Shown piece after piece: positions 7,045 to 58,134 of a DNA stretch of 58,442 nt. The first letter of the stretch is position 1. Each line of letters opens with the position of its first letter. The stretch is from NCBI GenBank assembly GCA_943704525.1, contig CALSCQ010002510.1, positions 1-58,442 of the forward strand, given 5' to 3'. A program made the translations under genes and the position numbers. Under the pieces are notes generated by a model. That model was not told the DNA's origin, did not search any database, and was given only the letters and a program-made list of their open reading frames with translations. The stretch comes from Pigoraptor vietnamica. Taxonomy: Eukaryota; Opisthokonta; Filasterea.

Positions 7045-7139
7045 GAAAGTGGTGGTTTGGGGGAGGGAGAGAGAGAGAGAGAGACAGAGAGAGAGATATC
7101 GGATCAGCTTAAATCATAGACGTGTGTCCATCGACTCCT

Positions 7140-7185
<46 letters not shown>

Positions 7186-8880
7186 TGTGTGTGTGTGAGG
7201 GAGATTAAGAGGAAGAGAGTGAGCACCTCCAGTTGGGACTCCGAAGACTCGGTGAGCTTTCGGAACTTCTGCGTCCAGTCGTCCTCCACAGGGCCGACGT
7301 GGTACAGGAAGGGCATGACGAACAGCGTGCCGTCGTCCTCGTCGCTTGCAAGGGCCGCGCGCGTCGACCGGACTAGCGCGCGCACAATCCGCAGCATCAT
7401 GTGACCGGTCGGGTGGTTGTTGAAATCGGCGCTCACAAACCCCACGCGCACGAGTGGGTGCCACTCGCCGTCCGCCGACTTGAAGGTGGGCTGGTGCGGC
7501 GACGACGCCACGATACGTGCAACAGGCGCCGCGGCCGCCTCCTCTCTAAGCGCATATCCGACTGCGATGCTCTTCCGCGCCTCCGGAGGGACCTTGAAGT
7601 ATTCAAATACGAAGGGCGCGTGGCACGGCGGCGCACTCTCTGTCCCCTGCTGGACCTTCTCTGCGTACGCATGCGCGGCAGTCGCCATGAGGGATTCGTC
7701 CTCTTCGCGGTGACTCCAGTCGCACACGCCGCGCCGCGTGTCGGCCAGCCGGCAGCGTGCGAGTTCGTTGTTCGGCTCAATCTCAATGGCGCGCTGGAAA
7801 GAGGCGATGGCGTCCGCAGTGCCGTTGGCCTTTTCCTTCGCTGTTGCGCGCAGAGGAGGTCAGCTGCCTCGGAGTGCGTGGCACGTGATGCTCGCACACA
7901 GTGCTCACCGGCAATCCCGCGGTTGATCCACGCAACGGCCATGTTCGGGTCGGCCTTTGTCGCAGCCACCGCGTGCTCGTGCGCCTCTGCCATCTGGCCG
8001 GCATCAATCAGCAGCTGCGCAGGCGGTGTGGACACGATAAGTGCGCGCGTGATGGTCTGGAACGTGTGTGTGTGCGTGCAAGCGCGGCCACTTAGTCCGT
8101 TACGTCGCGTACTCGACAGTTACGCGTATCCTCACCTGCGCAGCGTTGTTCTGCGCGAGGGCGTTCTGCGGATCGGCGTATATCGCCGCCATGTAAGCCG
8201 CGAGCGCGTCCTGCTTTCGTTGCGCAGCGTTGAGCACCACCCCCAAGAACGTGTTCGCCTCGGCGCTCTCCTTTGATTTTGGCCTGGCGAGCGACGCCGC
8301 CTTCTCCAGCGCACGCACGGCGCCTTGCACGTCGTTCGCGAGGTACCGCGCACGCCCAAGCGCGCTGTGCATGCTCCACGTCGCACCCGGCGCTTCGACG
8401 GCATGCTCAAACGCGGCAATGGCTTCCGCAATGCGGTTCGCAGATGCATACGCAGAGCCTGCACTCGCGCGTTGTGTGAGGGGGGGGGGGGGGGGGGCGC
8501 ATGCGCAGCAGCTTTTAATATCGACATCGCCCAAACTCACCGAGCTTGTAGTACGCAACGGCTGTCTTTCTGCTTGCCACCTCCGCGCGGAAACAGCCGA
8601 TGGCCTCGTCGAGGCGGCCCTCTCTAAAGAGCAGCGTGCCAGCATCACTGCGTGGCCATAGCGATTAGTACGCAGTGGCACATGCACGCGGGGTCAGCAC
8701 CGCGCACTCCACGCAAGCGCAGCAACGACGACGAGCAGCGAGCGACACGCACTCGTAGTTTCCCCTCACGGCCGTTGGGCATGGTGCCTTGTGCGCGGCG
8801 GTCACTCCAAGTGGCAGCCCAGCCAGCAGCGCCCACGCAAGCAGTGCGACGCCCCATCGCACACCCGCGTCCCCGCGCAT
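5452..8880 (-). CDS. OGT: TPR + GT41 O-linked GlcNAc (or O-fucose) transferase with signal-peptide-like N-terminus
   Basis: Ten exons (8753-8880, 8541-8647, 8136-8458, 7909-8014, 7227-7840, 6763-6921, 6402-6662, 6225-6330, 5968-6128, 5452-5883) encode 798 residues with all phases consistent. Several TPRs (for example REGRLDEAIGCFRAEVA, LLIDAGQMAEAHEHAV, DAIASFQRAIEIEPNN) precede a GT41 catalytic core: VRVGFVSADFNNHPTGHMM, IEVLVDMMGYTK, VSYLGYCGTTGASYVDYVVC, ERIAYLPHSYHV, DFVYCSLNKVDKLTPDIF and LDTQPINAHTTAAEM. GT41 enzymes modify Ser/Thr of nuclear and cytosolic proteins, with UDP-GlcNAc (OGT) or GDP-fucose (plant SPY) as donor; the donor cannot be decided here. The first ATG begins MRGDAGVRWGVALLAWALLA, a classical signal-peptide or signal-anchor shape, unexpected for the family. 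Intron 8648-8752 carries a TACTAAT branch point. Intron 6922-7226 holds microsatellites and one copy of the intronic repeat. Confidence 0.92.
6988..7198. repeat. CA, GA and GT microsatellites inside an OGT intron
   Basis: CA dinucleotides run from about 6988 to 7043, GA runs at about 7067-7095 and 7144-7182, and GT at 7183-7198. All lie in intron 6922-7226 and flank the intronic repeat copy at 7097-7140. Confidence 0.9.
7097..7140 (-). repeat. Dispersed intronic repeat, copy A (OGT intron)
   Basis: Read on the minus strand (sense to OGT), 40 bases (7138 down to 7099) are identical to copy B in the methyltransferase gene; the block starts GGAGTCGATGGACACACGTC and ends GCTGATCCGA. GA/CT runs flank it on both sides. 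It lies inside the intron 6922-7226, not in coding sequence. Confidence 0.85.
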
Positions 8881-36224: not shown

Positions 36225-38491
36225 ATGATCTCTGCTCTCCTTGCGTTGAAGGAGACTCGTTGCGCCCTCAAGTCGTTTGCGGATCGCGGCATCGCCAACC
36301 CGCATGGGCGTCTCTTGCGATCGTCGCCGATCAGCTTTCGAGCGATAGCAGTTTTCCGTCCCGAACCGCGTGCTTGCGACGAGAAGGTGGTCAAAATGGA
36401 GCCCGACGTTGCATCGTGCGCCAACGAGTGTGAGGCCGACGTTTCGGGGCTCTCGCTGGACTCTGCAGCCGATGAACCCGCAAGCCTCTTGTCTTCCGTG
36501 GCGTCGAATTCGAGCGGACGGAGCAGCGTGTCGCACGAAGGTAGCGACTACTACAGTTGCGAGGACACGACTCGAACCGCCAATGGCTCGCCAGTGGAAA
36601 AAGATGCGGGCGGCGACGCGCACTGCTTTGCGGCCGACGCCGAGGAAGATAAGGGCATTTTTGAGGAGGATACCGCGCTGAGGATATCGGACGACGATGC
36701 GGCGTTTGGCGTTTTGTCGCCGGAGCAGTTCGCTCGGCTTGACGCGGTGCTGGAGCGCATGTGCGTCGTTCACGGAGTGGACCGTTTTCCCACGATTAAG
36801 GCCAAGTGAGTGCAATGCTTTCGAGCGCAGAGTTGCGATGTCCATTGGGGTGCCTTGTCTACGTTGGCAATACCTCTGCGAGGTCTATGCGATGCATCTG
36901 TGCGTGGCTCATGCGCACCTGTTGATGGCTCTGTTGCGATTCGCTCTGCAGGTTGAAAGGCGTTATTCGCCTCCTTCGTAACGAGCTGACGCTTCGTGGC
37001 GTGTGCTTGCGGGACGTTCGCCTGTGCGGCGGCGCTGCGGCGCACGTCGTGGGGGGCGCGGCGCACGACACATACAACGACGTCGACGTCATTTTCAACG
37101 TGGACTGCGCGGACGGGTGAGTGCTTGCGCTGTACGTTGGTCGCAGGGGATATTCACGGCGGGAGATTTTTGACCACGTTGGAACGTTCTTCAGGTCTGA
37201 ATGGATGCTCTTCAGTATGACGCGCGAGGCTGTCACGTGCGTGCTTGCCAAGCTGTTTCCGGGGAATCTGAGCTCGGGTCGCATTGGGATGCACACGCTC
37301 GAGGCAGCGTACGTCGCCAAGATGTTCAAGGTGCGTGTCGTGTGCGCGTGCGCGAGGCCAGTGCTGTGTGTGTGTGAGAGAGTGTGTGTGTGTGTTTTTG
37401 ACGTGTAGGTTGTCATGGTGTGTCTGGGCGTTTCCTGTCTTGCGTTGAGTGGGCTGCAAGTGGTTCTTACACACATTTGAATTTCTTTGACGTGTGTGCA
37501 GATGCCGAGCCAGCGCGGATATGAGTCTGAGGACTGCTGGTCGCTCGTGACGCTGCGCAATCTGAACGGCCAGAGCATCGACCTCAAGTTTGTCAAGCGC
37601 ATGCGGAGACAGTGCGAGTTTTCCATCGATTCGTTTCAGATCTCCCTCTCGCCCCAGCTGCTCGAACTGCCGGAAATCCCGCCCATCGCGGCGCCCGCCC
37701 CCGTTCCTGTCGCACACGGCGTCGTCTTTCCGCACGACGGCAGCGTGGAGTTGGAACCCTACGGGGCCGCGTGGGAGCCCGTCCCCTTTGGGGCGTTCTT
37801 GCCCGTGTCGGACGACGGCTGCTTGGGGGAGTACGGCGCGCCGTTTGTTGCGCAACGCCCGGGCGTGTACTGCGATGCCGGCCGGTTTATGCCCGTGCAG
37901 GTCGAGTCGGTGTACTACAACGACTACCAGGGCGCGCTCGAGCACCTTCGCAGGCGGGAGATCTTCCACCTGAACCCCCAGGAAGTTCGCGGCGGCGGTC
38001 TGCTCAAGTACTGCCACTTGCTGTGCCGCGGCTTTTCGGTGTGTCCGCCGCCGGCGACGGAAGGAGAGGACGCGTCGGCACGCGCGGAGCAGGAGCAGCT
38101 GCAGCTGGAGAAGTACATGTTCAACCGCTTCTCGATCGACTTCAGCACGATCGCCGAGCAGCACGAGGCCATCGCGGGCTACTATTGGAATCATCTGGTG
38201 CGCGAGGGCGACGTGTGCGACGCCTGGCTCGCGACCCTCGCGACGGTCGTCCTGCGCGCGGGCGTGGAGGTGCGCTCGATCCTGCGGGTCATATGCGGAA
38301 TGCGCGCATCGATGGGCTATGCGCCGCTCGCGTTCGAGCCCGAGTGGGAGCAGCCCGCGAAGACGCCCGGCGGCGGGAAGGGGCGTCGGGGTGCGCAGGG
38401 AACGGTGACGTACACCGGCGGCAGTTATGCGCCGTACAGGAGTCGCAGCGGACGACGGAGCGGACGACACGCTGAACATGCCAACCGGTAG
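36225..38491 (+). CDS. TENT5: TENT5 (FAM46) non-canonical poly(A) polymerase
   Basis: Four exons (36225-36805, 36952-37116, 37195-37330, 37502-38491), 623 residues. TENT5 enzymes are nucleotidyltransferases that lengthen poly(A) tails of mRNAs, many of them secretory. The catalytic fold shows VRLCGGAAAHVVGG (GS-loop position), YNDVDVIF with the paired carboxylates at about residues 236-240, and a third carboxylate in SIDLKFVKRMRRQCEFSIDS. Family-specific text follows: YYNDYQGALEHLRRREIFHL, NPQEVRGGGLLKYCHLLCRG, KYMFNRFSIDFSTIAEQHEA. The GS position reads GGA rather than GS. The first 190 residues are acidic, Ser-rich and not conserved, and a Pro/Gly/acidic insert (about 330-420) separates the two halves. 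The C-terminus is Gly/Arg/Ser-rich and basic. Known members are mainly animal, which informs the lineage guess. Confidence 0.92.
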
Positions 38492-40612: not shown

Positions 40613-43600
40613 ATGGCTGACACCGACAAGACGGCCGCTGGCGGACGGCGGCGTCTCATGCACTTGCGCGATGCCGGCGCATCCTCGAGCCACACCGAAA
40701 GTCCGCAGCCCGAGCGTGTCGAAGTGGTACCGTTGCGCAATCCGCCCTCGCGCACGCAGCCCGTTTACGGCGCGTGGGTTCTACCACCGCAGTCGTCGGA
40801 GCGGGCGCCCTCGCGGCACTCGGACGCGTCCTCGACGCCGCGTGGGGACGCTGGCAGCAACAACGGCAGCCTTGAGTCTCTCCAGGCGAAGGCTGAAGCG
40901 ACCCCGCGCATAGCGGGCAATGACAAACATGCACACAAGACACAGGTGGGTCAACGGCGCCATCTTTTTTTTTTGTGATTTGCAGCACGCAGAACTCAAC
41001 CGCGACGTTTCTGCGCTACACGTGTGTTCGTGAGCGTGTGTTGTGACTCTTTTGCTTGCGGGCTTTCTAAACACAGCAAACATTCCTCTTCTCGGCAGAA
41101 ACACGCGGTCAAGTCGCCCGACGCACCGGACGTTGATCCCTTCTACGCCGAAGAGACGCTCAACATCGTGCGCGCCTTCTCAAAGCGGCATGGCGGCGTG
41201 CGTGGGCTGGGTCCCTCGGCGCTCTCGGCGTGGGACGAGCCCAAGTCGCCGGCGCCGCGCGGTCCCCAAAAGACGCTCACCATCGAATCCGTCTCGTCGG
41301 CGTCCGATAGCGAGCGAGAAGAAAAAGCGCACGCGACACCGCGTCCCTCTCCTTCCGTGGGCGACCGCAGCAACGGGCCCACACCCCCGACAGAGCCCCG
41401 CTCGCCCACGCTGCGCAGTCGGCCGTCGTCTTCGCGCTTCGCCCGCGCGTCCCCTTCCCACTCGTCCCGTCCCTCGTCCCCGCCTCCTCGCGACGACGTG
41501 CCGCTTGACAAGGAGATCGATGGCCTTCAAACAATCCTGTTTGAGCTCGTGTCGGGACGTAGCGGCGCGATCGACAGGCGGCAGGTCCGCATGATATCCG
41601 CACAGTGTCTGGACGTGACGAAGCAACTCCACGGCGTCAATTCGGAGGCATGGGCGCAGAAGACGGCGAAAGTGTCGCAGCTGCTGAATGAGCCGCCGCC
41701 ACCGCCCGACCCATCGTCCCCCTCCCCGCTGAGCGAGACGCTGAGGACGCTGGGCCTGGAGAATCCGCAGCCGGAAAAGCCGCCAAAGAGGCCACACATC
41801 GTCGGACGCCGCGAAAAGCGCGAGCGACGCAGCGGTTCACCCAAGCGCGCCGTTGCCGGCGGCTCTGGTGCCAGTTCGCTGGAGACGACGATGATGTCGG
41901 AGGGCGGCGCTGCGGCGACGATGATGTCGGAGGGCGGCGCTGTGCCGCAAACCCCCGAGTCCGGACACCTCGACACGGCGGTCAAGGGCACATCAGGCGG
42001 TGCGCCTGCGAAGCCTCGGTTCGTGGCGAACGTGGAGCAGGCCGCCTACGTGTCGGTGAAAGAAGAGGACGCCGCATCTGCCGTCGCAAGCGCACTGGAT
42101 CAGGGCCAACACGGCGCAATGGCCGAAGCTGCCAAGTCGGCACCCGATGCGGTAGAGGTAAAGGAGGAAACCGTGGAAGACGAGGGTGCGTCTCCGCCAA
42201 CGCCTGACGCGCCGACATCCGCGCACGCAACTGATGGGGTGCCTGTCGAAGGCGACGGCGCTGCGACGGCCACAAATGGTGAAGGCGCGACGGTTGCAAG
42301 TGGAGTAGAAGCTGGCAGCGATGGCGCTGGGACCGCTGTCGTGGAGGCAACGCCCGTTGTAAGCGACGCAACTGCGGAGGTCACGAACGAGCGTTCCAAT
42401 GCGGTAGAGGAGGGCGCCGTCGTCGCGCAGGATGGCGGGGGCCATTCGAGCGATGAAATGCACCAACGGAAAGGCCGGAGGAAGAGTGCCGTCGCCGTCG
42501 GAACAGTCAAGGATGACGCAGCTGATGAGGGCGGGACTGCAGTCGATGCAGCGACGGCTGTGCCCGCGGTACCGACCGTTGCGGACGACAGCGTCTTTAA
42601 GCCAATGGCACCGATTCTGTCCGATGACAAGGCGGTGCAGGAAGTGCGCGCGGACGCGGAGTGTGCGCGGGACCTTGCGGCTGCCACTCAGAAGAGGCGC
42701 GCCGACATGGAGGACGCCCTCCGCCGCATGAAGACGGGTCGCTTCGTGCGCGTGTTTGTCTCGTCGACGTTCAAGTGGGTGTCGATGCCTGTTAACGTGA
42801 AAAGTGGCTATTTTTCACGTACTCACACGTGTTGCTGGGCGTGCAATATCATTCGCTCACCACTCCTTCCTTTGTTACTGTGTGGCGTGTCCCGTCGCCT
42901 GCAGGGACATGGCGACAGAGCGCGACCACATCATCGGCAACGCCTTCGCGCGCCTCGCCCGTATGTGCCGGCAGAGGGGCGTCACCTTCTCCGAGATCGA
43001 CCTCCGATGGGGTGTGACGGGTGAGCGCGCACGGTGTCCCGCGAACGCAGAATGGCATCACAGACACATGTTGCATCAGTTGTATTCCCCCCCCCCCTCC
43101 CCTCTAGTACTCACTGCCTCATCGCACCCACTGCAGAGGCGCAAGCGACGGGTGGCGAAACCATTGGCATTTGCCTGCGCATGCTCGACAAGTGCCTGCC
43201 GTACTTTGTCTCCATCCTCGGCGGCCGCTACGGGTGGTACGGGCGTGAAGGGGACGAGGCCTTTACCACGGCCCTTGAGCTCGCCGCGCCTTCGTATCCG
43301 TGGGTGCGCGCCTTTGCCGACCGCTCCGTAACCGAGCTCGAAATTCGCCACGCCGCGCTGAACACGGCGTTCGTGGGGAAGGAAGTGTCGCGCGCGACGT
43401 TCTTCATCAGCGCGGCTGACACGAAGGACCCGTCCGACACGGAAGAGGCCACGCGCAAGTTGGCGGCGCTAAAGGACGAAATTCGCGCGTCCCAGCAGGA
43501 GTGGCAGACGTACGCGTCGCCGGAACAGCTGGGTGAGGCGGTTTACTCACGCCTTCACGAGATGATAACGCGGGACTTTCCCGTCGAACCCACCGACGAC

Positions 43601-46516
43601 GACGTCGTGGCCACTCAGCGCGTGCATGCTGCGTACATGCTGGGCCACTGCACGCCCATGTACCAGCCCGACGCCGCGTGCATGAAGCGACTCTCGGACG
43701 GCGCGTTTGTCGAGAAAAGCGCAGGCCCAGTTGTCGTGTCCTCGGACCCCGGCATGGGCAAGACTTCTCTCCTCGCGAACTGGATACGCGCGGAGGAAGC
43801 GGCCGGTCGCCTGCACACGTCGCTCGCCGCTCGCAACGACGCCGACACAACGCAGCCGCGCAACCTGTGCCTCTACTGGTTCGTGGGTGCGTCGCAGGCG
43901 AGCGCGTCCCCGCTCAAGATGCTCCTGTCGCTGTGCGCCATGCTCGGCCGTTGGCTCGGAATGCCCAACGCCGCGCTCCGCTCGCTCGGCCGCAACGGCG
44001 ACGTGGACCACGTGGCCCACAACTTTGTCAACATGCTGCAGCAGTGCGCCCGTCAGTGCGCGGAGGAAGTCCCCGCCGCGCGCCTCGTCTTTGTGGTGGA
44101 CGGCCTCGATGAGCTCACCGGCGCCCACGCAGAGTGGATCGGCCGCGTGGTCGACGCGCAGGCGGCAATGCCCGACAGCCTGCGGTTTGTGGCGTCGTAC
44201 GGCGCAGGGTGGGAGGAGGGCGTGCGACAGCTGCTTCAGCGCGGCGGCGGCACCGGGGCGAAGATCATCATGCTCTCGCCGTTCACAATGCGCCAGACGC
44301 AGGCGATGCTCGCTCGCTTCGAGGAGCTGTACGGGAAGACGTGGTCCGAGTCGCAGAGGGCGTCGCTCGACGGAATGGTTCCGAAGGCGCGTTCGAACCC
44401 GATGTTCCTCGCGCTCATGCTTGACACCCTTAGGGTGCACGCGAGCTTCGAGAACCTGGACAAGCTCCTCGCCACGCTCGCCGCGTGCGCCGACGTCGAG
44501 GCCCTCGTGGAGGAGCTCTTCCGTCAGCTCGAGGAGCGCATAAGTCAACGTCTTGGCGGCAACGAGGCGTCTTCTCGCGTACTTGCGCGGGAACTCGTGG
44601 GGAAGCTCGTCCGCAAGGTCGCGCTGGTGCAGGAAAGCATCGGCTACAGCGACGTCGCCGAGATGGTTACGTCCGACATGTCCGCGCTCGGCCTGCAATC
44701 GCAGTCTGCGCGCGTGCACGAAATCCTCCTCCTCTCGCAGAGCCTCATGGCGAGCGACGGCGACGACCGCGTACGATTCCCTCATGCCGTCATCCGCGCG
44801 GTTGCCCTCCACATTCACGCGCGCGGGCCACAGGGCGAGCGAGAGGCCGCCCGGGAACTCGCGACGTACATGGACGAAAAGATTAGCGCCGATCCGGACG
44901 GTGTGGAGCTCCGCCGCCTCGCGCCCGACCACCACCACGCGCTCCGTGCGGCGGGCGATGCGCGCACGCTAGACAAACTGGTGAAGACGCTGGTCGCAAC
45001 CCACATGGGGTCGCGGACGGACAGCGCCCCGAACGGCTGCGTCACCGCGCACGTGACGCTCGCCGGTATGACGGAATCGCAGCTGGCGTCCGTGTCCGAC
45101 GCGCTATCGAAGGCCGTCGCGCAAGTGCGGGAGATGGGCCAGGGCCTCGTAAAGTCTGTCGAGAGCGCGGCAGAGGCCCTGCTGCGCGTAGGACGGCCCG
45201 CGAACGGGCTCGACGTGCTCGTGGCCGTTGCCGATCGCGCGGGTGCCGCACGCGACGAGACGACGCAGATGGAGCTGTACTGCAAATTCCTTGATAAGTT
45301 GGCGCCATCGATCGCCCTTCACGAGAAACATGACGCCGAGGTGTCAGCGCGCCTGGATGCGATGACGCGCGGCATGGACGCGCTGCTCGCACGCGTCGCG
45401 CCAAGGGAGTTCCGCGCGAGGGAGCAGGAGACACCGTCCGATACGGACGACCAGCTCGCGCAGATGCGCAGCACGCTGCTCTCCATCGGAAAAAAGCTTG
45501 CGGAGGACAATCCCTCAGCACCTGCGGGAAAGGTGTCGCTCAAAATTGTCGCGCGCGCCGACTGCACGAGTGCGCTCGCCGCCGCCCGCAGTGCCGTGCG
45601 GGAGACCGCGTCGCTTTCCGGAATCGAACGCGCGGCCCGCCTGACAGAGGCCTGCAGCGTCCTCGAGGTCTGCCTACAGCGGCTGCTCGAGACGGACGAG
45701 GAGGCTCGCGACGGACGTGACGTGCTCGCGGGCGAAGCGCGCTGCCAAGCGGGCGTTTGCACGCTCCTCCGCGCACATAAGGGAGCCAGTGACACGTCAC
45801 TGAGGGGCCACGGCGCCGAGCTCGTGTCACTGGGTCGCAATACCGTGTGCCTGCATGGTCTCGGCATGCCCGATGCCATGTACCACGCCGAGTACGCTGG
45901 CGCGCTGCTCGACCGCAAGCGCGGGAACATTATCGACGCCTACAGCGGCTGTGTGCGCGCGCGCAAGTATCTCGGCGTTGGCGCGTCGGCCCCACCCGAG
46001 TTGCTCGCACTTGAGGCGAAGGTGCACCAACGGCTTCTGCGTCCGTTGCTCACCGTTTCGGTGCCGTCATCGCCAGGGCAGCAGTTCAACGCCGAGTGGA
46101 GGCCTCAGATTGCCGACAATTCGGTTGCCGAGGCGACGCACGTGCGGCTGGACGCGACGGCCCTTGTCCCCACAAAGGGACTTCCGTCGCCGGGAGTGGT
46201 GGAGCTGCTCGATGCGCCAGTGAGCGGTCCGAAGAGCGCGCAGGGATCGCACGCGTTCGATCTGATGCCGGGCGTGTGGGCAGTGACTGTCACGCTGCGC
46301 CTGTCACGCGAGGGGAAGACCGCGCTGGAGGCGTCGTGCAGCCGCATGGTATCGGCGCCACCGACTGCAGGTACGCGACACTTTCTGTTCGATTGTTTCC
46401 ACGAGTGCGTGCGATGTGCGCGTATGCGACATATGTGTGGGTTTTGACGTGCGAGTGAATAGTAATATTGTGCGTTGTGTGTGCGTGTGTGTATATATGT
46501 GTGTGCGTGTGTGTGT

Positions 46517-46594
<78 letters not shown>

Positions 46595-49500
46595 ATGTCT
46601 CGTCGTTCCTCTCCTCCTCCCCCCTCCCCCCCCTCCCCCCCACGTCGCCGAGTGGATTTGATGAACAGCCGACTGTGATTTGTGTTGATCTGACATCTCT
46701 CCCCTTTATCTCACCCCTCTATCCTAGTTGCCTGCTAACATCTCCCTGCCGCTTTTCTGTCTGCTACTCCAGCGGTGCCCCTTCCATCTGAACTTGACGC
46801 TGCGATCGCCGACGCATACTGCCGCGCCTGTTCAAAGTATTGCGCCTCAAAGGTCAGCCGCCAGGCGGCGTACGCTTGGCTTGTCGCCGCACGCAACATC
46901 ACCGGGCCCACAGCGGAGATTGAGTTGCAGCTCGGCAACCTCCTTCTCTCCGGTCGCGACAGCAGCGCAGAGGACGGTGCCATCCTGGCGCACTTGAACG
47001 CGTCCGTCTCGTTATGCATCGCGGGAAAGGGCACTCCTGACACTCTCCACGCTGCGTCCGTTGCGCTCGCGGATATGCACTTGCGGCGCGGGAAGGGACA
47101 TGACGCCCTTGCGGTCCTCACGCACGTTCCGACGGACGCGCAAGGGGTAAACGCAGACGTGTATCGATCGGCGGTCTTCGCGAGGGCCCATGCCCACCGC
47201 CTGTGCGACGAGCCCGAAAGCGCCGTGCGGGCTCTCCTGTCTCTGCGATCTCGCGCACCGCTCGAGTCGATGGCACTTGTGTGCGCTCTGCACGACTATG
47301 GCGCACTTCACGCGGCGCACGCCCTGCTGCGCCCGACGCCGACGTCGAAGCCGAGGGACAGCGCCGGATGGTGCTCTCCGAGCGCGCAGTCGCGGCATTG
47401 GGAGCCTGTGGGCGTCCACTTCCACGGGGGCCGCGCAGGCGAGGCCGCTTGGCACCTCGTGCGTGCAAGCGCGTATGCCGCGGCGGGAGACGCCGATACA
47501 GTCGCAACGCTCTTGCAGGCTGCGCGAGAGGCGACCGAGCTCGTCGATGTCTCGCATGCACGCACACGCGCCACGCTCCGCGCTTGGCACGTTCGCGTCG
47601 AGCACGTGGCGAATTCCGGGGGAGGTGCGGACGCGGCACTTAAGGCTGTGTCGGACGCAATCGACGCGATCGGCAAGTCGTCGTCGCACAACGGACTGCT
47701 CTACACCCTTCACACGTGGAGTGGCCACATGCAGCTCGAGGGAGCGCTGCGCGTGTCGCGCATTGCGGGCCGGGCAGAGCAGGTGCGGCGGGCCGTCGCA
47801 GCGTACGACCGCGCCCTTTCGCTTGGCACCTGTGAGTTTGATGCCCGCATGGGACGTGGGCGCGCGCTCTTGTTGGGTGCGGACGCGACCGGCGCTGTGG
47901 CCGAGTTTGAGCTTGCGTCGTCCGCGCGCCCCTCGAGCGCCCTGCCGCACATCGCACGCGCAGAGGCGCTCGCGTGGTCGATGGACGCCGACTTGGCGCA
48001 CACTGCGGCGACAGATGGACTGGCCATCTTGCGGGCCGACGCGGGCGCCGACGTCGAAGGCACGGAGACATTCGACGCGGTCGCCCTGTTGCGCGCGCCT
48101 GAGGCAAAGACGCGCGCCATCGCAGTGGACGTGTGGGCCAGCGTGCTCGAAGGCAATGCGCTGCGCGCGCAGTCGTCCCTCGACACGCTGTCGCCGTCGG
48201 CGCACCTCTCGTCCCTTGCCTCTCTCGCTTCCGCCTGCGTGCAGAGCGAAAACGACGGCACGAAGACGGCCGACATTGAACGCGGGTTTGAGGCGGCGAT
48301 GCAGGATGTCGTGTGGCGCCCGCACGCCCTGTGGCGCCGCGCCGAGTGGAGGCAGCGGACGGGCGACTCTGAGCGCGCGGCTAGGGATTACGCCGCGTAC
48401 GTCGACGACGCTGCCGGCGTGAGCGCACTTCCGCCGGGCATGTCCCTCGTGGAGGCGGCATACAGGTCGGCGTCTTGTTACTGGCTCTCGAAGGACTACC
48501 AGCGTGCGATTGCGATGGCGACGCGGTGCATCGCGGAGAAGGGACATCCCACGAACGCGTACCGCGTGCGGTCAAACGCGCGCCATGCGCTGGGCAAGCG
48601 CTGCGAGGGGAGCGAGCGCGAAGCGCATCTCTCCGGCGCCGTGGACGACCTTTCTCGCCTCATCGACGACAGCCCCTCCGACATGCACGCGTATCGGCTG
48701 CGCGCGCTGTGCCACAGAGCAATGGGGCGGCCCGAACTGGCACTGGACGACCACGACGCGGATGTGCGGCTGAGCCCCACAGATCCCACAGCACTCTACG
48801 AACGCGGAAAGACGCGAATGGCCGCCAAGCTGCTCCCGCAGGCTGCGACCGATGCGGATGCGGCGCTGGCGCTGGACCCCAGCTACGCGCGCGCGCGCGT
48901 GCTTCGTGCGCGTGTTGCTGCGGCGGAGGAGCAGTGGGACGAGGCCGTTGCCACGTATGCGCTCGTGGTGCGGGATGCGTTGCGAGCACCGAAGCGCGCG
49001 GTGTGCGTTTTCGAACACGCGCAGTGCCTGTATGCTCTGTCGCGTTTCGAAGAGGCCGCGAGGGAGTACACGGCGTTCTTCGCCATTCCCGAGCGTCCGG
49101 CAGCGTTAGTCGCCAGGGGGCACGTCCGACGCGCCATTTGCCGCCTCCGCAGGGACATGTTCAAGGCGGCTTTGGACGAGCTCCAGAGTGTCCCGGAGCC
49201 GCAGAGAGACGCCGAGTGGCACTGGTGCAGGGGCGCGTCCTTGTTACGCAAGGGATCGCACGGTGCGGCCGTCGACGCCCTCGAGACGGCGATTGCTTCA
49301 GACGACACGTGCTGGGAGTACTACCGAGATCTCGGCTTGGCGCATCTCGCGCTGGAAGACATAAGAGCGGCTTCCGCCTTTGGCGATGCGCTCAAGCGAC
49401 GTCCCGGACATCCGCCCACTCTGTATTGTCGGGCGCGGGCGCTCGCGGCGACTTCTGATCACGTGCGCGCCGTTCGCGATCTCACACACGCGCTCTCGTT

Positions 49501-52500
49501 CCCGGACGCTTTCGACGAGCGCTGCGCCGCACTTTTCCTGCGCGCGCGCCTTCTCGGTGGCCCGCTCCATCGCGCAGCAGCGGCCATCGAGGACCTTGAC
49601 GCGCTGTTGCAGGCGGACCCAGCGTGCGGTCCCGCGTGGCTGATGCGCGCCCGCATGTGCTGCGAACTGAAACAGTATGACGATGCCCGACAGAGTGCGA
49701 GCAACGCGCTTGCGGTAACGCGCGGGAAAGGTTGGCTCGAGTACGAGGCGAGGGGGGGGCAGGACGCCAAGTCCACCGCCGCGGCGCTCACGGGGCACGA
49801 GCTGAACTGCCGCATTGTGCGCGCCGACTGCGCCGCGCTTCAGTTGCATTGGCGGCCCGCAGTGGAGGACTATGGGCGGGCGCTCGCTCTCCTTGCGACC
49901 GGCGAGACCGCGATGGAAGCGACGCTGCGTCTTGGCCGCGGGAAGGCGTATGCTGCGCTGGGTCTGCTCGACGACGCAGAGCGTGACTTCCAGCTGTCGT
50001 ATATGAGAGCGCCGAGCGAGGCAGCGGCGTGCGCCCATGCGGGGACGTCGGCGGCCCGTGGGGATTACGAGGCGCAGGCGGTGTGGGCACGCAACGCGCT
50101 GGAAGTGGAGCCAAAGAGCGCGCTTGGCCACGAACACCTTGCAAGTGCGCTCACTGGCATGGGGAAACACGCGGAGGCCATCGATGCCGCGGACACGGCC
50201 GTGTCGCTGAACGGCCGCAGCGTCTCTGCGCACAGCACTCGCGCCGTGTGCTTTCGAGCGCTCGGCCGTTTCTCCGATGCCGTGCGCGACTTTACTCGCG
50301 CGATTGCTCTCAAGACGACTGCGGGCGTGGCGCATGCGCCCGACTTGTGCGAGCGCGCGGCTCTGTCGGCGCTGTTGGGTATGACAGGGGCGGCGCTCGA
50401 AGACTACGACACTGCACTCGCTGAATCCCCGGGCAGTGCGGTGGCCCTTCTGGGGCGCGCGGAGGTGCGCCTCCTCGTCGGTGACGTTGATGCTGCCGAG
50501 AAGGACTTTGCGGACGCGACGGAGGCTGCGACATCGCTACCGGCACCTGTTCGTGGTGCCGGTTCTGTCCCTCCAGTGGCCACGAACGCTGGGCTATTGC
50601 GTGTGCAGTGCGAGCGAGGGCTCGGCGACTGTGCCATGGCCGGCGGTCGGCTCTCCGACGCCGCCAAGGCTTACTCGGACGCGCTCTCGTGTGCCGACCG
50701 CACTGGACAGGAGGAGTCACCGCTACTGGCCGCCGACGGATGGAGCGCCGCGCCGCTTCACTTTTCGCTCGCTTCGCACCGTGTGAGGACCCTCCTGGGA
50801 CGCGCCGACGCGTTGCGACTGAGCGTGGGACAGCGAGAGGCCGCACTGTCTGATTACGAAGAGGTTCTTCGTGGCGCGGCCACGGAGACGCCCGTCGACC
50901 GAGTCGTGCGATGGTGGGCGCACTTTGGCGCGGGAAGTCTGCTCGAGTCCCTGGGTGATGTGGCGGGCGCCTGCAAGCACCTCGAAGCGGCCGCTTTGCT
51001 GTGCCAGCATGCGCAGGCCGTGAAGGGACTTCCGCACTGGCTGAGCTTCGGCGCGGCGGACGTGTGGTGTGCGTACGGGCGCTGCCTCTCTGCGTGTGGA
51101 TCCGCAGAAAAGGCGCTGCAGGCCTTTGGCGAGGCGCTCGTCGTGAACATGTCGCACGTTGCATCGCACAGTGGGAAGGGTGCGGTGTACGCGTCGCTTC
51201 AGCAGTGGGACCAGGCCGTGGGTTCGTACAGTCGCGCGCTCGAGCTCGACCCAGCACACGCAAACGCTCTACTCGGCCGCGGCGCAGCGCTGTTGGCCAT
51301 CGCTGTCGACGGGCGCTCTTCTTGGCAGAGCTCCGCCAAACGCGCGGTGGCCGATCTTAGTGAGGGCATCCGGCTGTGCTCCGAGCCACCCAAGGGCGCT
51401 CTCGCAAATCTCGGTGACGCGCAGCTATTACTCGGACTCGCTGCGGAGGCGCTGGAGACGTACACTTCCGTGGGAAGCGCTGCGCTGTCGTCAGGAGGCG
51501 ACGACGTGGGGGGAAGGGCGCTGCTGGGAAGAGCGAGCGCCCTCTCGCTGTTGGAGCAGTGGCAGGATGCGGCGCGTGCATACGCAGTCGCCGAGACTTG
51601 GATTGCGGGCGCGTCGGACGCTGCGAGTCTCTACGAGTCGTGGGGCGACGCTCTCGTGAAGCAAGGCAAGCACGCAGACGCTCACGACAAGTACGTCATG
51701 GCCGTCGACCGTCGTCGGGAGGCGGCGTTGCCCAAGTCGCAAGCGAACGAAAGCGCGGGTTCGGAACTTGCTCCCGCTGCTGTCGAAGGCTCTGCCGTCA
51801 CGATGACGTCGGATGCCTCGCGTGGGAGTCTTGCGTCGTGTCTCTTGAAGACGTCGACGAGCGGACTCGCAGCGAAAAACATGGACGTGGCGCGCGCGTG
51901 CGAAGTGCTCGCGGAGGCCGCGTCGCTAGCGCCGAACAACCGCGCGATCGCCGCTGCGCTCGGGCGGTGTCGCGTGGACGCCGGCGACATGGCGGGCGCG
52001 GAGGAGGCCCTGCAGCGTGCGATCGCAATGGATCCCAACGACGCAGCCCTTCTCTGCCTGCTCGGCGCCGTGCGTCAGCGCACGGGATCGGACGACAAGG
52101 CTCGCGATGCATTCCAGCGGGCACTGGCGGTGGACGCGGATTGCGTTCCCGCGCACGTGGGCCTCGGAACGCTCCTCGCCGCCCGGAATTCGCAGGCGTC
52201 CAGTGGCCATTTCAGCGAGGCCCTCCGCCTGGCTCCCAACGACCCCGAGGTGTACGTGCGCCGCAGCCTTGTGCGACTCGCGCTGGGCGACCTGAGCGGT
52301 GCGCGCGATGACGTCCACTCCGCTGTTCGCTACGGGTGCGAGGAGGCGGCGGCAGCATTTGTCACCGGCGAGTGCTTGCGTGCGGAGGGAGACTACGGCG
52401 CCGCCGTGTCGAGCTATTCCGTGACGGTTGCGCGCGGCGGTGCGTTTGCGTTTGATGCCCTTCTGGGGCGTGGCGAGTCGCTCCGACAGGTGGGCATGCT

Positions 52501-55500
52501 CGAAGAAGCGAGTGCGGACACGAATGCTGCGCAGCTGTTGCGACCTGACGCGACGGCCGTGCTTTCACTGCGCGCACGCATTGCGCTCTCGCTCGGAGCC
52601 GTTGGCGAAGCGAAAGCCATGGCGGAGGACGTACTCAAGGCGCTTCCCGGACATCCCGAGTCCCTCTGCGTGCTCGGTAGTGCGTGCGTGACAGCAGGGA
52701 CCACCTCGGAAGCGATCGCCCACTTTGAGCGTGCGCTGACGTCCTGTGTTCTGTGCCGCACTGCGCAATACTGGCTTGGAGTGCTCGAGGCGCCGTCAGA
52801 CGCCCACGCGGCACGGGTACATCTGAGCAGCGCCGTGCTTCCGGGTGTCGCTGCGCTGTCCCAGACGACCGCGTGCGAGGCCTACTGCCTGCTCGGTAAG
52901 CTCGCTCTCGCCGAGGGAACAACCGGCGCAGAGAAGGCGCTCGCCCACTACGACGACGCCGTACGTTGCAACGCGGCGAACGCCATAGCACACGTCGGGA
53001 GGGCGCGGGCGCTGCGTGTACTCACGCGTACGGACGGTGCCATTGATGAGTTCCGCGCCGGCCTCTCGCTTGCATCCATGGAGGCTGCGGCAGAGACAGC
53101 CGCGCGGTTGGAGTTTTCGGACTGTCTGTGCGCGGCCCGACGCTACGGGGAAGCACAGGACGAGCTGCAACGCGTGTGCGACGCGGACCCGACGGGGGCG
53201 TACGTTCGTCTCGGGGATCTCTTCATGAACACCGCCGATTTTCCGCGGGCGATCGATGCGTATGGACGGTGCATCGCGGCCGCCCCCAAGGCAACAACGT
53301 CACAGGACGCGCACGTGCTCTTGCGGAGTAACATTGGCTTGGCAACTGCTCTCCGCGAAACGGGCGATTTGAAGGCAGCGCTCGAGGTCGCTTTGCGTGC
53401 GGCGACGATGGTGAACGCCGCGCGGTCCAACGGGCGGCCGCCGGGAGGCGCAGACGGGCACGTAGAGGCGCTGGTTCTCCTCGGTCGCCTGCACAGCGAG
53501 TGCGGGAACGGCGCGGCGGCTGCAAGCGACTACACGCGCGCGATGGAATATCTGTGGGCGGACTGCGGGCGCTCGGACGGGACGCTGCTGCTTGCACGCG
53601 GCCGCTGTCGTCTGGCCATCGGCGACCACTACGGCGCGCTGTCGGATTTTGGCGAGGCGCTCGCGCTGTTTTCCGAATCAAGCTCGAGCGCGAAAGACCG
53701 CGACGCCGCGATGGTGGGCCGTGCGCGCGCGCTGTATGGCCTCGGAGACTATGGTGCGGCGTTGGAAGAGCTCCAAACGGACAGTCTCGAGCTCGGTATG
53801 GACGATTTGCTTCTGCGCAGCGAGGCGTACGAGAAAGTGGGGAGCCACGAGCAGGCGCTTGAGGACATTGAGGCGGTCCTCCGGGGTGAGAAGGGAGCGG
53901 CCCCGGATTTTCTGGGCGCCGTGTGCACGCGAAAGGCACACATTCTCATGCGGTGCGGACGCAGCGACGAGGCGTCCGGCGCGTTCGAAGCCGCCCTGTC
54001 ACGTGGCTCCCAGCACCTCACGCCGATGGCGGCTGCGCACGTGATGGTTAACTGGGCGACGCTCTTGCGCGGCAGCGGCGAAACGGCGCGCGCACTCGAG
54101 CTCTTCCACCGTGCATCCGCCTCACTGCCTACGACAGCAGGGACTGGTGCCAAGGAAGTCGTCGCGGAAGCGCACCGCGGCGCCGGAGAGTGTCTTCTGA
54201 CGCTGGAGCGCTACACCGAGGGCGCAGCGGAACTGCGGCGGGCAGTCAAGCTCACGCCGGACGACACGCACGCAATGGCTGCGTTGGCCGAGTGTCTATC
54301 GCTCTCCAAGGAACGTAGCGACGCGACAGAGGCTGTGCGCATGGCGACCGTCGTCCTCGAAAACGCCGCCGGGGCGAAGCACCATGCGCGCGCACTCGTG
54401 TCGCGGGCGTGTGCGCAGTTGCTACTGGACAACACGGATGATGCGATCGCCGACTTCCGCGCCGTACTTGAGCTGCACGACATGGCTTCGGCGTCGCGGA
54501 CATCGTCGCCGACGCCTTCCAACACACGCACACACGGCGCATCGCCCGCCATCTCCGACGAGAGTGAGTTGATTGCGAGTGCGCGGCTGGGCCTCGGCAG
54601 GGCGCTCGTATCGTGCGGGGACGCAGAGGGTGCCGCGGTGGAACTGCGCCAAGCCATCGAGGCGTCGCCAAGAGAGGGCGTGCAGACTGAAGCGCACGCA
54701 CGCCTTGCCGAGGCGCTGTGGGCGATGGGGTGTGCGGCAGAGGCAGCGGCGGAGTGCGAGTGCATCCTAAGAGCCAAGGCGAGTAAGGTGCCCCGCAATT
54801 TGCGCGCGCTCGTTCTGACGGTGCTCGGAGACATTGCGTTGGCGGAGGGTGCGCACGCGCGTGCGCTCGAACACTTCATGCAAGCGTTGCAGCTGGAGCG
54901 CACTTCTCGGGCCGCGTACGGCGCCGCTCTCAGTCAGGCGTATCTCGGACGCCCCAGCGAGGCTGTGGAGGGCTGTACCGCCATTATTGAGCGATCGGGA
55001 GCCAACGTGCAATCCATGCCGGCGCTGGCGTTGAGAAGCGAACTGCGGCTGTTCCTCGGTGACTTTGAAGGTGCGGTGGCGGACGTGCGGGAGGCGATTG
55101 CGCGCGGCTTCTCCGAACGGGCGCGTGCGCTCGAGACCAAGGGGACTGCGCTGCGGCAACTCCGACACACCGCCGACGCGCTCTCTGCGTTCGAAGAATT
55201 ATTCAGCCGCACGCGCCCTGAAGACGCTGCCGCCCAGCACACGGCGGCCGCAGTCGGCGGCTTTGGGCTGTGTCTGGCCGAGAGCGGGCGAAAGGCGGAG
55301 GCAGCGCAGTGGCTTTCCCAGGCTCTCGACATGCTCGAAATCGACGGCCCACGCGTGCCCGCGCGTGCGGTGCCGTGGCGGCGACAGCCGGACGAGCGCG
55401 AGCTGCGCCTTGCCCGCGCAGAGTGCAGCATTGTCGCGTGCGACTACGACGCGGCCATCGCGGACTTGGATCTTGTCGCTGGGTCGCGGACTGCCGGTGG

Positions 55501-57982
55501 CCTCGGATCGCTTGGGCCGCGGCTCAAGTCGCTGCGGGAGATGTGCTCGACGAGCATGTTTGAACGCGGAAAGAGCGCCATAGACGACGATCGCGCCGAC
55601 GACGCGCTCCCGCTGCTCCGGACGGCAGCCATTCTTGCGGAGTCGCCTGCGCCGCAGCTGTGCGTGGCACTTGCGCGGGCCACTGCCAACGCACGCGCGA
55701 CGACCGCCGACCTCGAAGAGGCGCTCAAGTGGTGCAAGCGCGCGTCGTCGCACTCGGCGGCCAAAGTTGCAGACCGCATTGCGGCCTTTGCGATTCGCAT
55801 CGACGCGAACGTGCGCCTCGGACGAAGGAACGTGCTCCACGACGACTGCGCCGCGATGGTGCGCGTGCTGGGCGAAGACTCGAAGAACGCACGCCATGCG
55901 ACAGCGATTGCGGAGGCGTGTCTCGACGCGGGGGAGGCCGAGCTTGCTGCACAGGCAGTGGAGTACGTGCGCGACGACGGCGGCAAGGGAACGGGACGGC
56001 GGTCGAAGTCCCTCCGCGACATCTACCGGCGCATTGCAGACGCATACTTTGCACTGGGAATGGTGTCGGATGCCGCGACGATGTACGAGAGCTCCGCCAC
56101 GCTCGAGCGGACGGCAGACGCACTCGCGGGCCTCGCTCACTGCGCGTTGCGAAAGAAGGACCGCGCGCGTGCACAGGAAGCTGCGCGGGCGGCGCTGAAG
56201 CTTAAGTCGAACTGCACGCGCGCCAAGGCCATCCTCGCGCAGGTCCACGTCGATACTGCCCGGTACAAAGACGCGCTCGTTCTGCTTCGCGAGGCGGACG
56301 CTGAGCTGTCACGTGTCCTGAGGGGATCGAGCGGTGCTGTCGGCGTCAATTCCGTCGAGGCCCAGGTACGCTTGGCGGTCTCGCGATCGCTTGCGACGGC
56401 GCTCGCCGCCACCGACGAAATGGACGAGGCCGAGTCGTGGGCCACTGAAGCCATTGCGCTCGTGGAACCCGGCGCCGGTCCCAACGCGCCCGCACCCGTG
56501 CAGATATCCCTTGGTGAGCTCGCGCGTCTGCTGCTTCAGCGCGGACGCATGCGGCTGCGTCTTCGTGACAAGGCCGAGGGCGCGCTCGCCGATTTCGTGC
56601 GGTCCATCGATCTCCTCGGCGGTGCGAATGCAGCTGGGTCTGACGATGGCAAGCGCGCGATGGGGGGCAGAGCAAAGGCGCTCGCACTGCTCGGACGCAA
56701 GCCGGAAGCGCTCGAGCAGTACGACGCGCTGCTCCAGGCGCCGAGGGGCGACGATGCCGCCCTCGCGTGGCTTGAGAATGCATACTGCGAGAGGGGCTTC
56801 TTGTTGCTGTCCGTGCGTAGGGACGCGAAGGCCGCGGCGAAGGATTTCGAGAAAGTATTGTCGATGTCGCCATCGGGGGCGAAGGGCGGCGGCTCCGCTG
56901 GGAGGTCCCGGCAGAAGGACGCGGCGGCGCCAGCGGCGAAGGCGAAGGAGAGCGCCGTTGCGACGGAGGCGCGCTTGGGTCTCGGCATGGCGCAGTCGGT
57001 GCAAGGGAACCACACGGCGGCACTGAACAACATCAAGGCCGCCCTTGCCGCGCGTCCAACCCTGCGGACGGCAGAAGTGCTTGTCGCGCAGGCCCGGAGT
57101 TGCCTTGCTCTCGGCAGGGACGTCGAGGCAATGGCGATGGCGAAGGACGCCGTGGCCATGGCGCCCGCGCTTCAGGACGCGCTCGACATCAAGGCCGAAG
57201 TGGCTCGCGTGCAGGACGCAAACGGTTGGTGCTCGTGGCAAATATGATCCGATGGGCCTGTGTCGCTCTGTCTGATTGAACAACTATGTTCTGTTTGATA
57301 GATATTCGTTGAGCACGGTGTGTTGTTGACATTTGTGCTCACGCACATTTCTATTGTACCTGGTCACGCAGACATGCTTGTCAAGGCGTCGGCGAGTCTT
57401 ATGAAGGGATTGCCTGAGGAGGCGCTTCGCATGTTCGACGACGCTCTGCGGCTCGGCGCGAGGGACAAGGGTGCCGCGCTGATGGGGCGTGCGCGGTGCC
57501 TGGGCACGTTGGGAAGGGAGGGCGTCGCTGCGGACGTGGCTGCGGCAGTCGAATTGCGACCGAATGATGCGCGCTTGCGCATGGATGCCGCACAGACGCT
57601 TCTCGATGCGAAGCGGCCCACGGAAGGCCTCGTGCACGCCGACATGGCGGTCCGCGTGACGGCGGCGAAGGAGGCAGAGCCGTTCAAGTTGCGCGCTCTG
57701 CTGTACGAGTCGATTGGAGACGTGAACGCCGCGCTTAGGGACCTTGCGACTCTTTCCCGTCTCGACCCAAAGGATGCCGATGCCCTTGTGCGGCGCGGGT
57801 CGCTTTTGTTGAGGACTGGGAATGCCAAAATGGCCGAGAAGGCGTTCCAACAGGCGCTCAAACTCGACCCCACCAACACCACGGCGAAGGAGGGACTGGC
57901 CTCGATCGTGGAGGGAAGTGCCGGCATGCGCACTGTCGTTGCTGCCGGCGCCGCAGCGGAACTGACGGCCGGACGCGCTTGA
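40613..57982 (+). CDS. Giant DUF4062-NACHT-TPR protein (STAND/NLR-like), about 5,473 residues
   Basis: Six exons (40613-40945, 41099-42774, 42905-43020, 43137-46370, 46773-57224, 57372-57982) sum to 16,422 nt with every phase consistent. Residues 1-655 are disordered: Ser/Pro-rich, then Ala/Glu/Val-rich. DUF4062 starts at about 660: RVFVSSTFKDMATERDHIIG, FSEIDLRWGVT, CLPYFVSILGGRYGWYG. A NACHT-type P-loop ATPase follows, with Walker A DPGMGKTS (G914-T918) and Walker B VFVVDGLDEL (D near 1030). From about 1,790 to the end it is almost entirely TPRs (for example DAIADFRAVLEL, AIDAYGRCIAAAPK, AEKAFQQALKLDPTN), enough room for up to about 100. DUF4062-NTPase-repeat proteins include TEP1, NWD1 and NPHP3-like relatives and many NLR-like sensors. 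Here the TPR superhelix would be the sensing or scaffolding part. I know no described protein with this size and order. Intron 46371-46772 carries repeat copy D. Confidence 0.88.
41885..41942 (+). repeat. In-frame 30-bp tandem duplication in the giant gene
   Basis: The unit encoding TMMSEGGAAA is present twice, 30 nt apart, with one or two differences, in the disordered N-terminal region. Confidence 0.9.
46478..46593. repeat. TG microsatellite in an intron of the giant gene
   Basis: About 115 bases of TG with minor interruptions in intron 46371-46772, followed by a pyrimidine-rich CCTCCCCCC tract. Confidence 0.95.
46649..46705 (+). repeat. Dispersed intronic repeat, copy D (giant gene intron)
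   Basis: Aligned to copy B it keeps GAGTGGA, GATG, ACA, TGATTT, TGATC, GACA and TCTCTC; by hand about 41 of 52 aligned positions match, with a 2-nt gap. It lies in intron 46371-46772, sense to its host. It contains TGATGA and CTGA words that resemble snoRNA boxes C and D, which the other copies do not keep exactly. Confidence 0.75.
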
Positions 57983-58134
57983 GAGTCTAATTGTCGCATC
58001 TATATGTCTGTATAATTAATTAAAAGACATATTATTTTCCAAAAAAACCAAAATATGATCGCCGACAGCCGTATTATTAGGTGCCGCGTATTTCGGCACA
58101 GGACAGGCCAGTCAATCGACAGAGTTCCTGCATG

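What the first reader, a model, noticed from the sequence alone, without database searches (positions are those of the whole stretch)
40613..57982. Giant DUF4062-NACHT-TPR protein with a single 10.45-kb TPR exon
The sequence shows six exons in continuous phase that join a disordered head, DUF4062 (VFVSSTFKDMATERD, LRWGVT), a complete NACHT-type ATPase (DPGMGKTS, VFVVDGLDEL) and about 3,680 residues of TPR-like helices. DUF4062 and STAND ATPases are known from signalling and innate-immune-like proteins in animals, fungi and bacteria. The size, and a sensor arm perhaps 100 TPRs long, would make this one of the largest NLR-like proteins. It may be a lineage-specific immunity or giant scaffold system; the role is inference.
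Basis: partly seen in the sequence, partly recalled or inferred. Interest (0 to 1): 0.9.

Follow-up and report, generated by a model that had tools for sequence, protein, structure and literature searches.

The report
Giant TIR-like NACHT protein, huge TPR arm
A single-celled eukaryote appears to encode a 5,473-residue protein that joins a possible NAD-cutting domain and an ATP-driven switch to an unusually long TPR-repeat arm, which would be a new giant version of a known immune-like and scaffold protein family.

Summary
Six exons (40613-57982, +) join in phase to 5,473 residues. DUF4062 spans three exons and scores 48.8 bits spliced, against 22.5-26 bits from exon 4 alone. A P-loop ATPase of the nephrocystin-3 type follows, then a 3,687-residue TPR arm, mostly one 10,452-nt exon. 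Profiles not trained on the arm find 45-59 TPRs and a self-trained one 76-77; "100" is an upper guess.

A 2026 preprint reports DUF4062 as a TIR-like NADase family (human TEP1, bacterial Swarozyc). This protein keeps the TEP1 catalytic Glu and one of two Arg tested there, so I read it as a TIR-like/NACHT/TPR signal switch. NADase activity is inferred; human NPHP3, nearest by layout, was inactive.

The arm differs from NPHP3's: no TPR_NPHP3 or TPR_10 match, and only 1 of 300 chunk pairs still looks alike, which speaks against recent repeat amplification. The genome has seven other DUF4062 loci, one of them below the cut-off: among them are a TEP1-like gene and a probable DUF4062-NACHT-LRR-myosin gene. 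It also has vault protein repeats.

New variant of a known kind. The exon 4/5 join, an immune role and any size record are unproven.

The parts
40613..40945 (+). exon 1, residues 1-111, disordered-looking head with the first ATG of its frame
   Evidence: splice model; weak codon support; not scanned against Pfam
41099..42774 (+). exon 2, residues 112-669, low-complexity head ending in the first strand of DUF4062 (RVFVSSTF)
   Evidence: no Pfam family at 0.001 in the ORF
42905..43020 (+). exon 3, middle of DUF4062 (DMATERD...DLRWGVT)
   Evidence: the spliced domain scores 48.8 bits
42749..43252 (+). DUF4062 (TIR-like) profile match, residues 662-747, interrupted by introns 2 and 3
   Evidence: coordinates
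43340..43342 (+). codon of Glu777 in SVTELE, aligned to the TEP1 catalytic E1008
43137..46370 (+). exon 4: end of DUF4062, P-loop ATPase, helical region, and a last stretch (residues about 1679-1786) that looks beta-rich by eye only
43730..44128 (+). NPHP3_N / NACHT-type ATPase; Walker A SSDPGMGKTS 43739-43768, Walker B LVFVVDGLDEL 44084-44116
   Evidence: motif names recalled
46371..46772 (+). intron 4, 402 nt, with (GT)n tract; none of AATAAA, ATTAAA, TGTAA
46773..57224 (+). exon 5, 10,452 nt, residues 1787-5270: TPR arm
57218..57466 (+). TPR motif (residues 5269-5302) that begins at the last codons of exon 5 and lies almost wholly in exon 6
57372..57982 (+). exon 6, last TPRs and stop
58019..58024 (+). 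ATTAAA polyA-like signal in an AT-rich stretch after the stop

Best explanation
One gene encodes a 5,473-residue STAND-type signal switch of the DUF4062-NACHT class. Shown by sequence: low-complexity head, TIR-like DUF4062 with the catalytic Glu kept, P-loop ATPase with Walker A and B, and a 3,687-residue TPR arm. Inferred: the TPR superhelix holds the protein inactive and binds a large or multi-part ligand. Binding lets the ATPase load ATP and oligomerise, which brings DUF4062 domains together, and they then hydrolyse NAD(P)+ as a signal or cell-death output. That is the route the TEP1 authors speculate on for TEP1 with its WD40 arm; bacterial Swarozyc shows ligand-triggered DUF4062 NADase action without a NACHT.
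For: In-phase GT-AG model. The DUF4062 profile is completed only by splicing. TPR motif over intron 5. No ATG that reads into exon 5 before 47075. Solved TEP1 TIR domain (11gz_A) matches at 1e-15. E1008 and R976 equivalents kept, R908 is Lys. DUF4062 reported as TIR-like NADase, TEP1 activity rising with concentration (PMC13174449). DUF4062-ATPase-repeat layouts recur in single own-genome ORFs with TPR (C346a, C346b) and WD40 (C1089) arms, and with LRR after one intron (C97).
Against: Of human NWD1, NWD2, NPHP3 and TEP1 only TEP1 was active, and this DUF4062 is closer to the NPHP3-like paralogues (107-109 bits) than to the own TEP1-like gene (87) or human TEP1 (59-60). The Glu is kept in 7 of 7 own-genome domains aligned, so it does not single out active ones. 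TEP1 R954 aligns with Glu here. PF05729 is below cut-off. The codon score was made from exon 5 itself, so its result there is not independent. No RNA, no structure model, no orthologue.
Confidence: 0.45

Rival explanations
1. One giant gene, but a scaffold rather than an enzyme: like human NPHP3, the DUF4062 is catalytically silent and the NACHT/TPR protein organises a ciliary, cytoskeletal or trafficking complex along its very long TPR arm.
For: Closest own-genome DUF4062 relatives are the NPHP3-like tandem genes with TPR_NPHP3 and NPHP3_hel over cut-off; human NPHP3 had no NADase activity; the genome has IFT46 (252.9 bits, 0 of 14 control genomes ring), so cilia are likely; the arm's repeats are individually diverged (1 of 300 chunk pairs similar), as expected of a fixed multi-partner scaffold.
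Against: Catalytic Glu and one Arg kept; NPHP3_hel and TPR_NPHP3 not listed and no MG- start for this protein; nothing ties it to cilia.
Confidence: 0.33
2. Two neighbouring genes: a DUF4062-NACHT gene ending in or near intron 4 and a separate giant TPR gene starting in or before exon 5.
For: The exon 4/5 join crosses a linker with no shared domain; intron 4 is the longest of the five (402 nt) and carries a GT repeat.
Against: In phase with a pyrimidine-rich acceptor; the first ATG that reads into exon 5 is at 47075, about 100 codons inside the exon; no polyA-like word of the three tested in intron 4 but ATTAAA 37 nt after the final stop. None of this is proof.
Confidence: 0.14
3. Decayed or mis-assembled locus: an old gene no longer working, or two loci joined in assembly.
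For: 1,395-contig assembly; no second copy to check against in three searches.
Against: A 3,502-codon open frame is not what decay leaves; the five introns have GT-AG ends.
Confidence: 0.05

Closest known systems
Nephrocystin-3 (NPHP3) and NPHP3-like DUF4062-NACHT-TPR proteins
   Same: Order DUF4062, P-loop ATPase (PF24883 over cut-off), TPR arm; the own-genome NPHP3-like pair C346a/b is nearest by DUF4062; TPR_12 matches both arms
   Different: NPHP3_hel, TPR_NPHP3 and TPR_10 not listed, no MG- start; arm led by TPR_1, TPR_2 and TPR_16; about four times longer than human NPHP3 (1,330 aa, recalled)
TEP1 (vault protein, active TIR-like NADase)
   Same: DUF4062 with catalytic Glu and R976 equivalent; adjacent P-loop ATPase
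   Different: No TROVE or WD40 listed; the genome has a separate TEP1-like gene (C1089: DUF4062, ATPase and WD40 in one ORF, TROVE in the adjoining ORF)
Swarozyc (bacterial DUF4062 antiphage defence, KpSwz)
   Same: DUF4062 TIR-like domain (weak PDB match, E 0.25)
   Different: Winged-helix type auxiliary domain instead of NACHT/TPR (paper); that domain was not looked for here
NACHT-TPR / NB-ARC-TPR proteins of fungi, algae and others
   Same: STAND ATPase with TPR arm (18 papers hold such terms, 12 listed, listing only); a receptor role is recalled, not read
   Different: N-terminal parts and sequences not compared here

Membership tests
DUF4062 (PF13271, TIR-like) | Profile match over curated cut-off | tested here: met
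   48.8 bits vs 24.7, spliced protein; exon 4 part alone 22.5, 23.4 and 26 bits
DUF4062 (PF13271, TIR-like) | Catalytic Glu (TEP1 E1008) | tested here: met
   Glu777; alignment; chain numbering inferred by offset
DUF4062 (PF13271, TIR-like) | Active-site Arg of TEP1: R908 and R976 (alanine lowers activity), R954 (points into the site) | tested here: inconclusive
   R976 kept; R908 is Lys; R954 aligns with Glu
DUF4062 (PF13271, TIR-like) | NAD(P)+ hydrolysis | not testable with these tools
   needs enzyme assay
STAND / NACHT ATPase | NACHT model PF05729 over cut-off | tested here: not met
   19.3 bits vs 26.7; not among the 10 genome matches at 0.001
STAND / NACHT ATPase | Walker A, Walker B (hhhhDGLDE) and a related P-loop model over cut-off | tested here: met
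   PF24883 27.4-29.2 bits vs 24.8; motifs; motif meaning recalled
NPHP3 orthologue | NPHP3_hel and TPR_NPHP3 domains | tested here: not met
   not listed; over cut-off in C346a/b
NPHP3 orthologue | N-terminal MG- (myristoylation, recalled) | tested here: not met
   starts MADTDK in the model
TEP1 orthologue | TROVE and WD40 domains | tested here: not met
   none listed for exon 2 ORF, exon 4 or exon 5; exon 1 (111 aa) not scanned
TPR protein | Arrays of TPR motifs over cut-off | tested here: met
   PF07719 1.7e-47, PF00515 1e-31; 45-77 motifs by profile
NLR immune receptor | Ligand-triggered oligomerisation and immune output | not testable with these tools
   needs experiment
Known prokaryotic defence proteins (PADLOC) | Profile match at 0.01 | tested here: not met
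   0 families for DUF4062-NACHT (525 aa) and the first 1,000 aa of the arm; rest of the protein not scanned

The most novel reading that the evidence does not exclude
A true TIR-like NADase receptor of a protist whose sensor is the longest TPR superhelix known (my estimate some 75-95 repeats, of the order of 60-80 nm if it follows usual TPR geometry, which is recalled), built from individually specialised repeats rather than copied ones, so that one molecule reads a very large or multi-part assembly and answers by cutting NAD+. It would stand beside a TEP1-like vault gene and LRR- and myosin-bearing DUF4062-NACHT relatives in the same cell.
Probability: 0.25. Interest if true: 0.85.

Novelty: new variant of a known kind. 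Interest (0 to 1): 0.56.

Why it matters
DUF4062 has only just been reported as a TIR-like NADase; of the four human proteins tested in that preprint only TEP1 was active. A protist genome with eight DUF4062 loci (seven over the cut-off) on TPR, WD40 and LRR arms, one with a TPR arm of 3,687 residues, is a test bed for which members kept the enzyme and what the repeat arms sense. A yardstick: a review of TPR proteins speaks of 2 to 20 repeats per protein (PMC7279152, start of abstract).

Tried and rejected
HMM iteration from a single TPR consensus (one search failed on an option) gave 32 hits, many partial, and was replaced by a gapless profile with shuffle controls. Self-BLAST of the arm printed no off-diagonal hits even for C346b, which has plain repeats, so I treat it as uninformative; replaced by chunk comparison. 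IFT57 as a cilium marker was uninformative (below cut-off, three archaeal controls ring too); IFT46 was clear. No tRNA or Rfam match in the window. Rejected: NPHP3 or TEP1 orthology (defining domains not found); chance open frame.

Full report
What was checked. The window is contig C1037 of an unnamed 32.5-Mb genome in 1,395 contigs, eukaryotic by its introns, vault and IFT46 genes. Joining the six exons, with the intron 1 acceptor at 41098, gives one frame of 5,473 residues from the ATG at 40613 to the stop at 57980-57982. The five introns are GT-AG, 116 to 402 nt. Exon 5 is 10,452 nt and its open frame holds 3,502 codons; 200 first-order Markov sequences of the same composition never exceeded 637. 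By a synonymous-codon score the model's frame is the best of six for exons 1-5, only narrowly for exons 1 and 2. The score was made from exon 5, so exon 5 is no independent test. For exon 6 another frame is slightly better (0.248 vs 0.233), yet exon 6 has strong TPR matches.

Do the exons belong together? Introns 2 and 3 cut through DUF4062. The exon 4 part alone gives 22.5 and 23.4 bits by hmmscan and 26 bits in the genome search, around the cut-off of 24.7; the spliced protein gives 48.8 bits over profile positions 1-69. A TPR motif starts at the end of exon 5 and runs through exon 6 (residues 5269-5302). The exon 4/5 join has no such support. It is in phase, and the first ATG that reads into exon 5 is at 47075, about 100 codons inside it. 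Intron 4 has none of the three polyA-like words tested, while ATTAAA lies 37 nt after the last stop in an AT-rich stretch. I put the two-gene rival at 0.14.

Domains. The ATPase passes the NPHP3_N model (27.4-29.2 vs 24.8 bits) but not the NACHT model (19.3 vs 26.7); Walker A (SSDPGMGKTS) and Walker B (LVFVVDGLDEL) are plain. The 290-residue end of exon 4 has no Pfam match at 0.1; I call its last hundred residues beta-rich by eye only.

The arm. From residue 1787 it has 3,687 residues. Counting TPRs depends on the profile. An untrained consensus finds 45-53 (shuffled arm 2-6). A profile trained on another TPR gene of the genome (C1189) finds 48-59 (shuffled 1.5-5.5). A profile trained on the arm finds 76-77 (the same profile on shuffled arms 3-19; shuffled arms trained the same way 18-28). 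Of the 76 spacings between the 77 listed hits 18 are exactly 34, 32 are 35-45, 10 are 46-60 and 16 are 61 or more, so some degenerate repeats are probably missed; 75-95 is my estimate. Leading families are TPR_1, TPR_2 and TPR_16; TPR_12 also matches (6.4e-31). A 712-residue piece matches engineered TPR proteins and SPINDLY in the PDB. Mean identity between the 77 repeats is 18%. Of 300 pairs of 150-residue chunks only 1 is detectably similar, against 6 of 6 in the NPHP3-like gene C346b, 2 of 3 in C346a, 9 of 21 in C1189 and 0 of 15 in C1208. So the arm was not built by recent copying, a trait it shares with C1208. TPR_NPHP3 and TPR_10, which are strong in C346a/b, are not listed for it.

What DUF4062 does. 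A 2026 preprint (PMC13174449; text parts 1-3 of 6 read, plus passages) reports DUF4062 as a TIR-like NADase family: bacterial Swarozyc defence, and human TEP1 in the vault, with catalytic E1008. Alanine at R908 or R976 lowers activity, and R954 of the BB loop points into the site. Of human NWD1, NWD2, NPHP3 and TEP1 only TEP1 was active. The solved TEP1 domain (11gz_A) matches this protein at 1e-15. I infer the chain's numbering from an offset that puts all four named residues on the right letter. Here E1008 is Glu777, R976 is kept, R908 is Lys and R954 aligns with Glu. The Glu is kept in 7 of 7 own-genome domains aligned (C1203, only partly covered, was not aligned), so it is not telling by itself. 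By pairwise score this domain is nearest to the NPHP3-like pair (107-109 bits), then the own TEP1-like gene (87), C1208 (70) and human TEP1 (59-60).

Relatives in the same genome. Eight DUF4062 places ring at 0.001, this gene included; seven are over the cut-off, C97 is just below (24.3 bits). C346a and C346b are tandem NPHP3-like genes. C1208 and C922 have TPR_NPHP3-type repeats, below that model's cut-off, downstream on the same strand, and C1203 has WD40 repeats; these exon links were not worked out. C1089 is TEP1-like: DUF4062, ATPase and WD40 with the TEP1 second propeller over cut-off in one ORF, TROVE (4.9e-95) in the adjoining ORF on the same strand, junction not worked out. C97 has NACHT, then LRR and myosin. 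Vault protein repeats are present at C909. No second copy of the giant was found with exon 4 or with two arm pieces that cover 2,413 of its 3,687 residues, apart from a 79-bp scrap.

How it most likely works. Shown: the parts and their order. From known families: STAND ATPases switch by nucleotide exchange and oligomerisation under control of a repeat arm (recalled; APAF-1 in the preprint's discussion), and TIR-type NADases need oligomerisation (PMC13174449). Inferred: the TPR arm binds the ligand, and Glu777 cuts NAD(P)+. The scaffold reading, with a silent DUF4062 as in NPHP3, is nearly as likely.

Novelty. DUF4062-NACHT-TPR is a known layout; the size and make-up of the arm are the new part. 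In the library 9 papers hold 'DUF4062' and 7 of these 'NACHT' too (titles and starts of abstracts seen, one paper read in part); none of those titles and abstract starts describes such a giant. A search for giant or largest NLR/STAND/TPR proteins (10 of 1,559 listed, most of them unrelated) returned one relevant paper, a 27.7-kb 'giant NLR' gene of soybean (PMC8571336, start of abstract), whose protein size I did not look up. Searches on NACHT/TPR terms and TPR length showed no equal in their listings. Subscription journals and protein databases were not searched, so I claim no record.

Noticed in passing
L021:3422-9914 (own genome C97:9421-15913): Probable DUF4062-NACHT-LRR-myosin gene: ORF whose first Met begins MGCGAS, with a divergent DUF4062 (20.9-24.3 bits, below cut-off; Glu kept, R976 equivalent Lys) and NACHT (3.5e-8), joinable in phase (donor 5873, acceptor 6102; other in-phase pairs exist) to one ORF with LRR_6 (5.5e-18) and then a myosin head (1.8e-55), no stop between. 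An NLR-like protein fused to a motor domain would be very unusual.
   Followed up: partly
L017 (own genome C1089) and C909: TEP1-like gene (DUF4062, ATPase, WD40; TROVE in the adjoining ORF) plus major vault protein repeats in this genome; a second TROVE gene lies on C820.
   Followed up: partly
L045 (C420:25352-25471) vs window 54871-54949: A 79-bp piece of exon 5 sits on another contig at 97.5% identity, with no other DNA match to the window in the 3,120 bases around it: a recently copied exon scrap or an assembly matter.
   Followed up: partly
C408 and C1233: Two IFT46 loci, one unbroken over 188 codons and one in three pieces (one with a TGA): paralogues, or two organisms in the assembly.
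   Followed up: no
C416, C622, C314, C718, C697, C503: Six further contigs with NACHT matches and no DUF4062 match, three of them in open frames of 1,594-2,104 codons; C503 is below the cut-off, and 11 of 14 prokaryote controls ring too (3 over the cut-off), so the weaker ones may be other P-loop proteins.
   Followed up: no
window 37121-38488 (+): Nucleotidyltransferase family NTP_transf_7 (2.8e-42; TENT5/FAM46 kind, recalled) upstream of the giant gene.
   Followed up: no
window 7107-8693 (-): TPRs (TPR_16 5.8e-8) and a weak Glyco_transf_41 match (23.5 bits, cut-off 25) in neighbouring ORFs: a possible O-GlcNAc-transferase-like gene.
   Followed up: no
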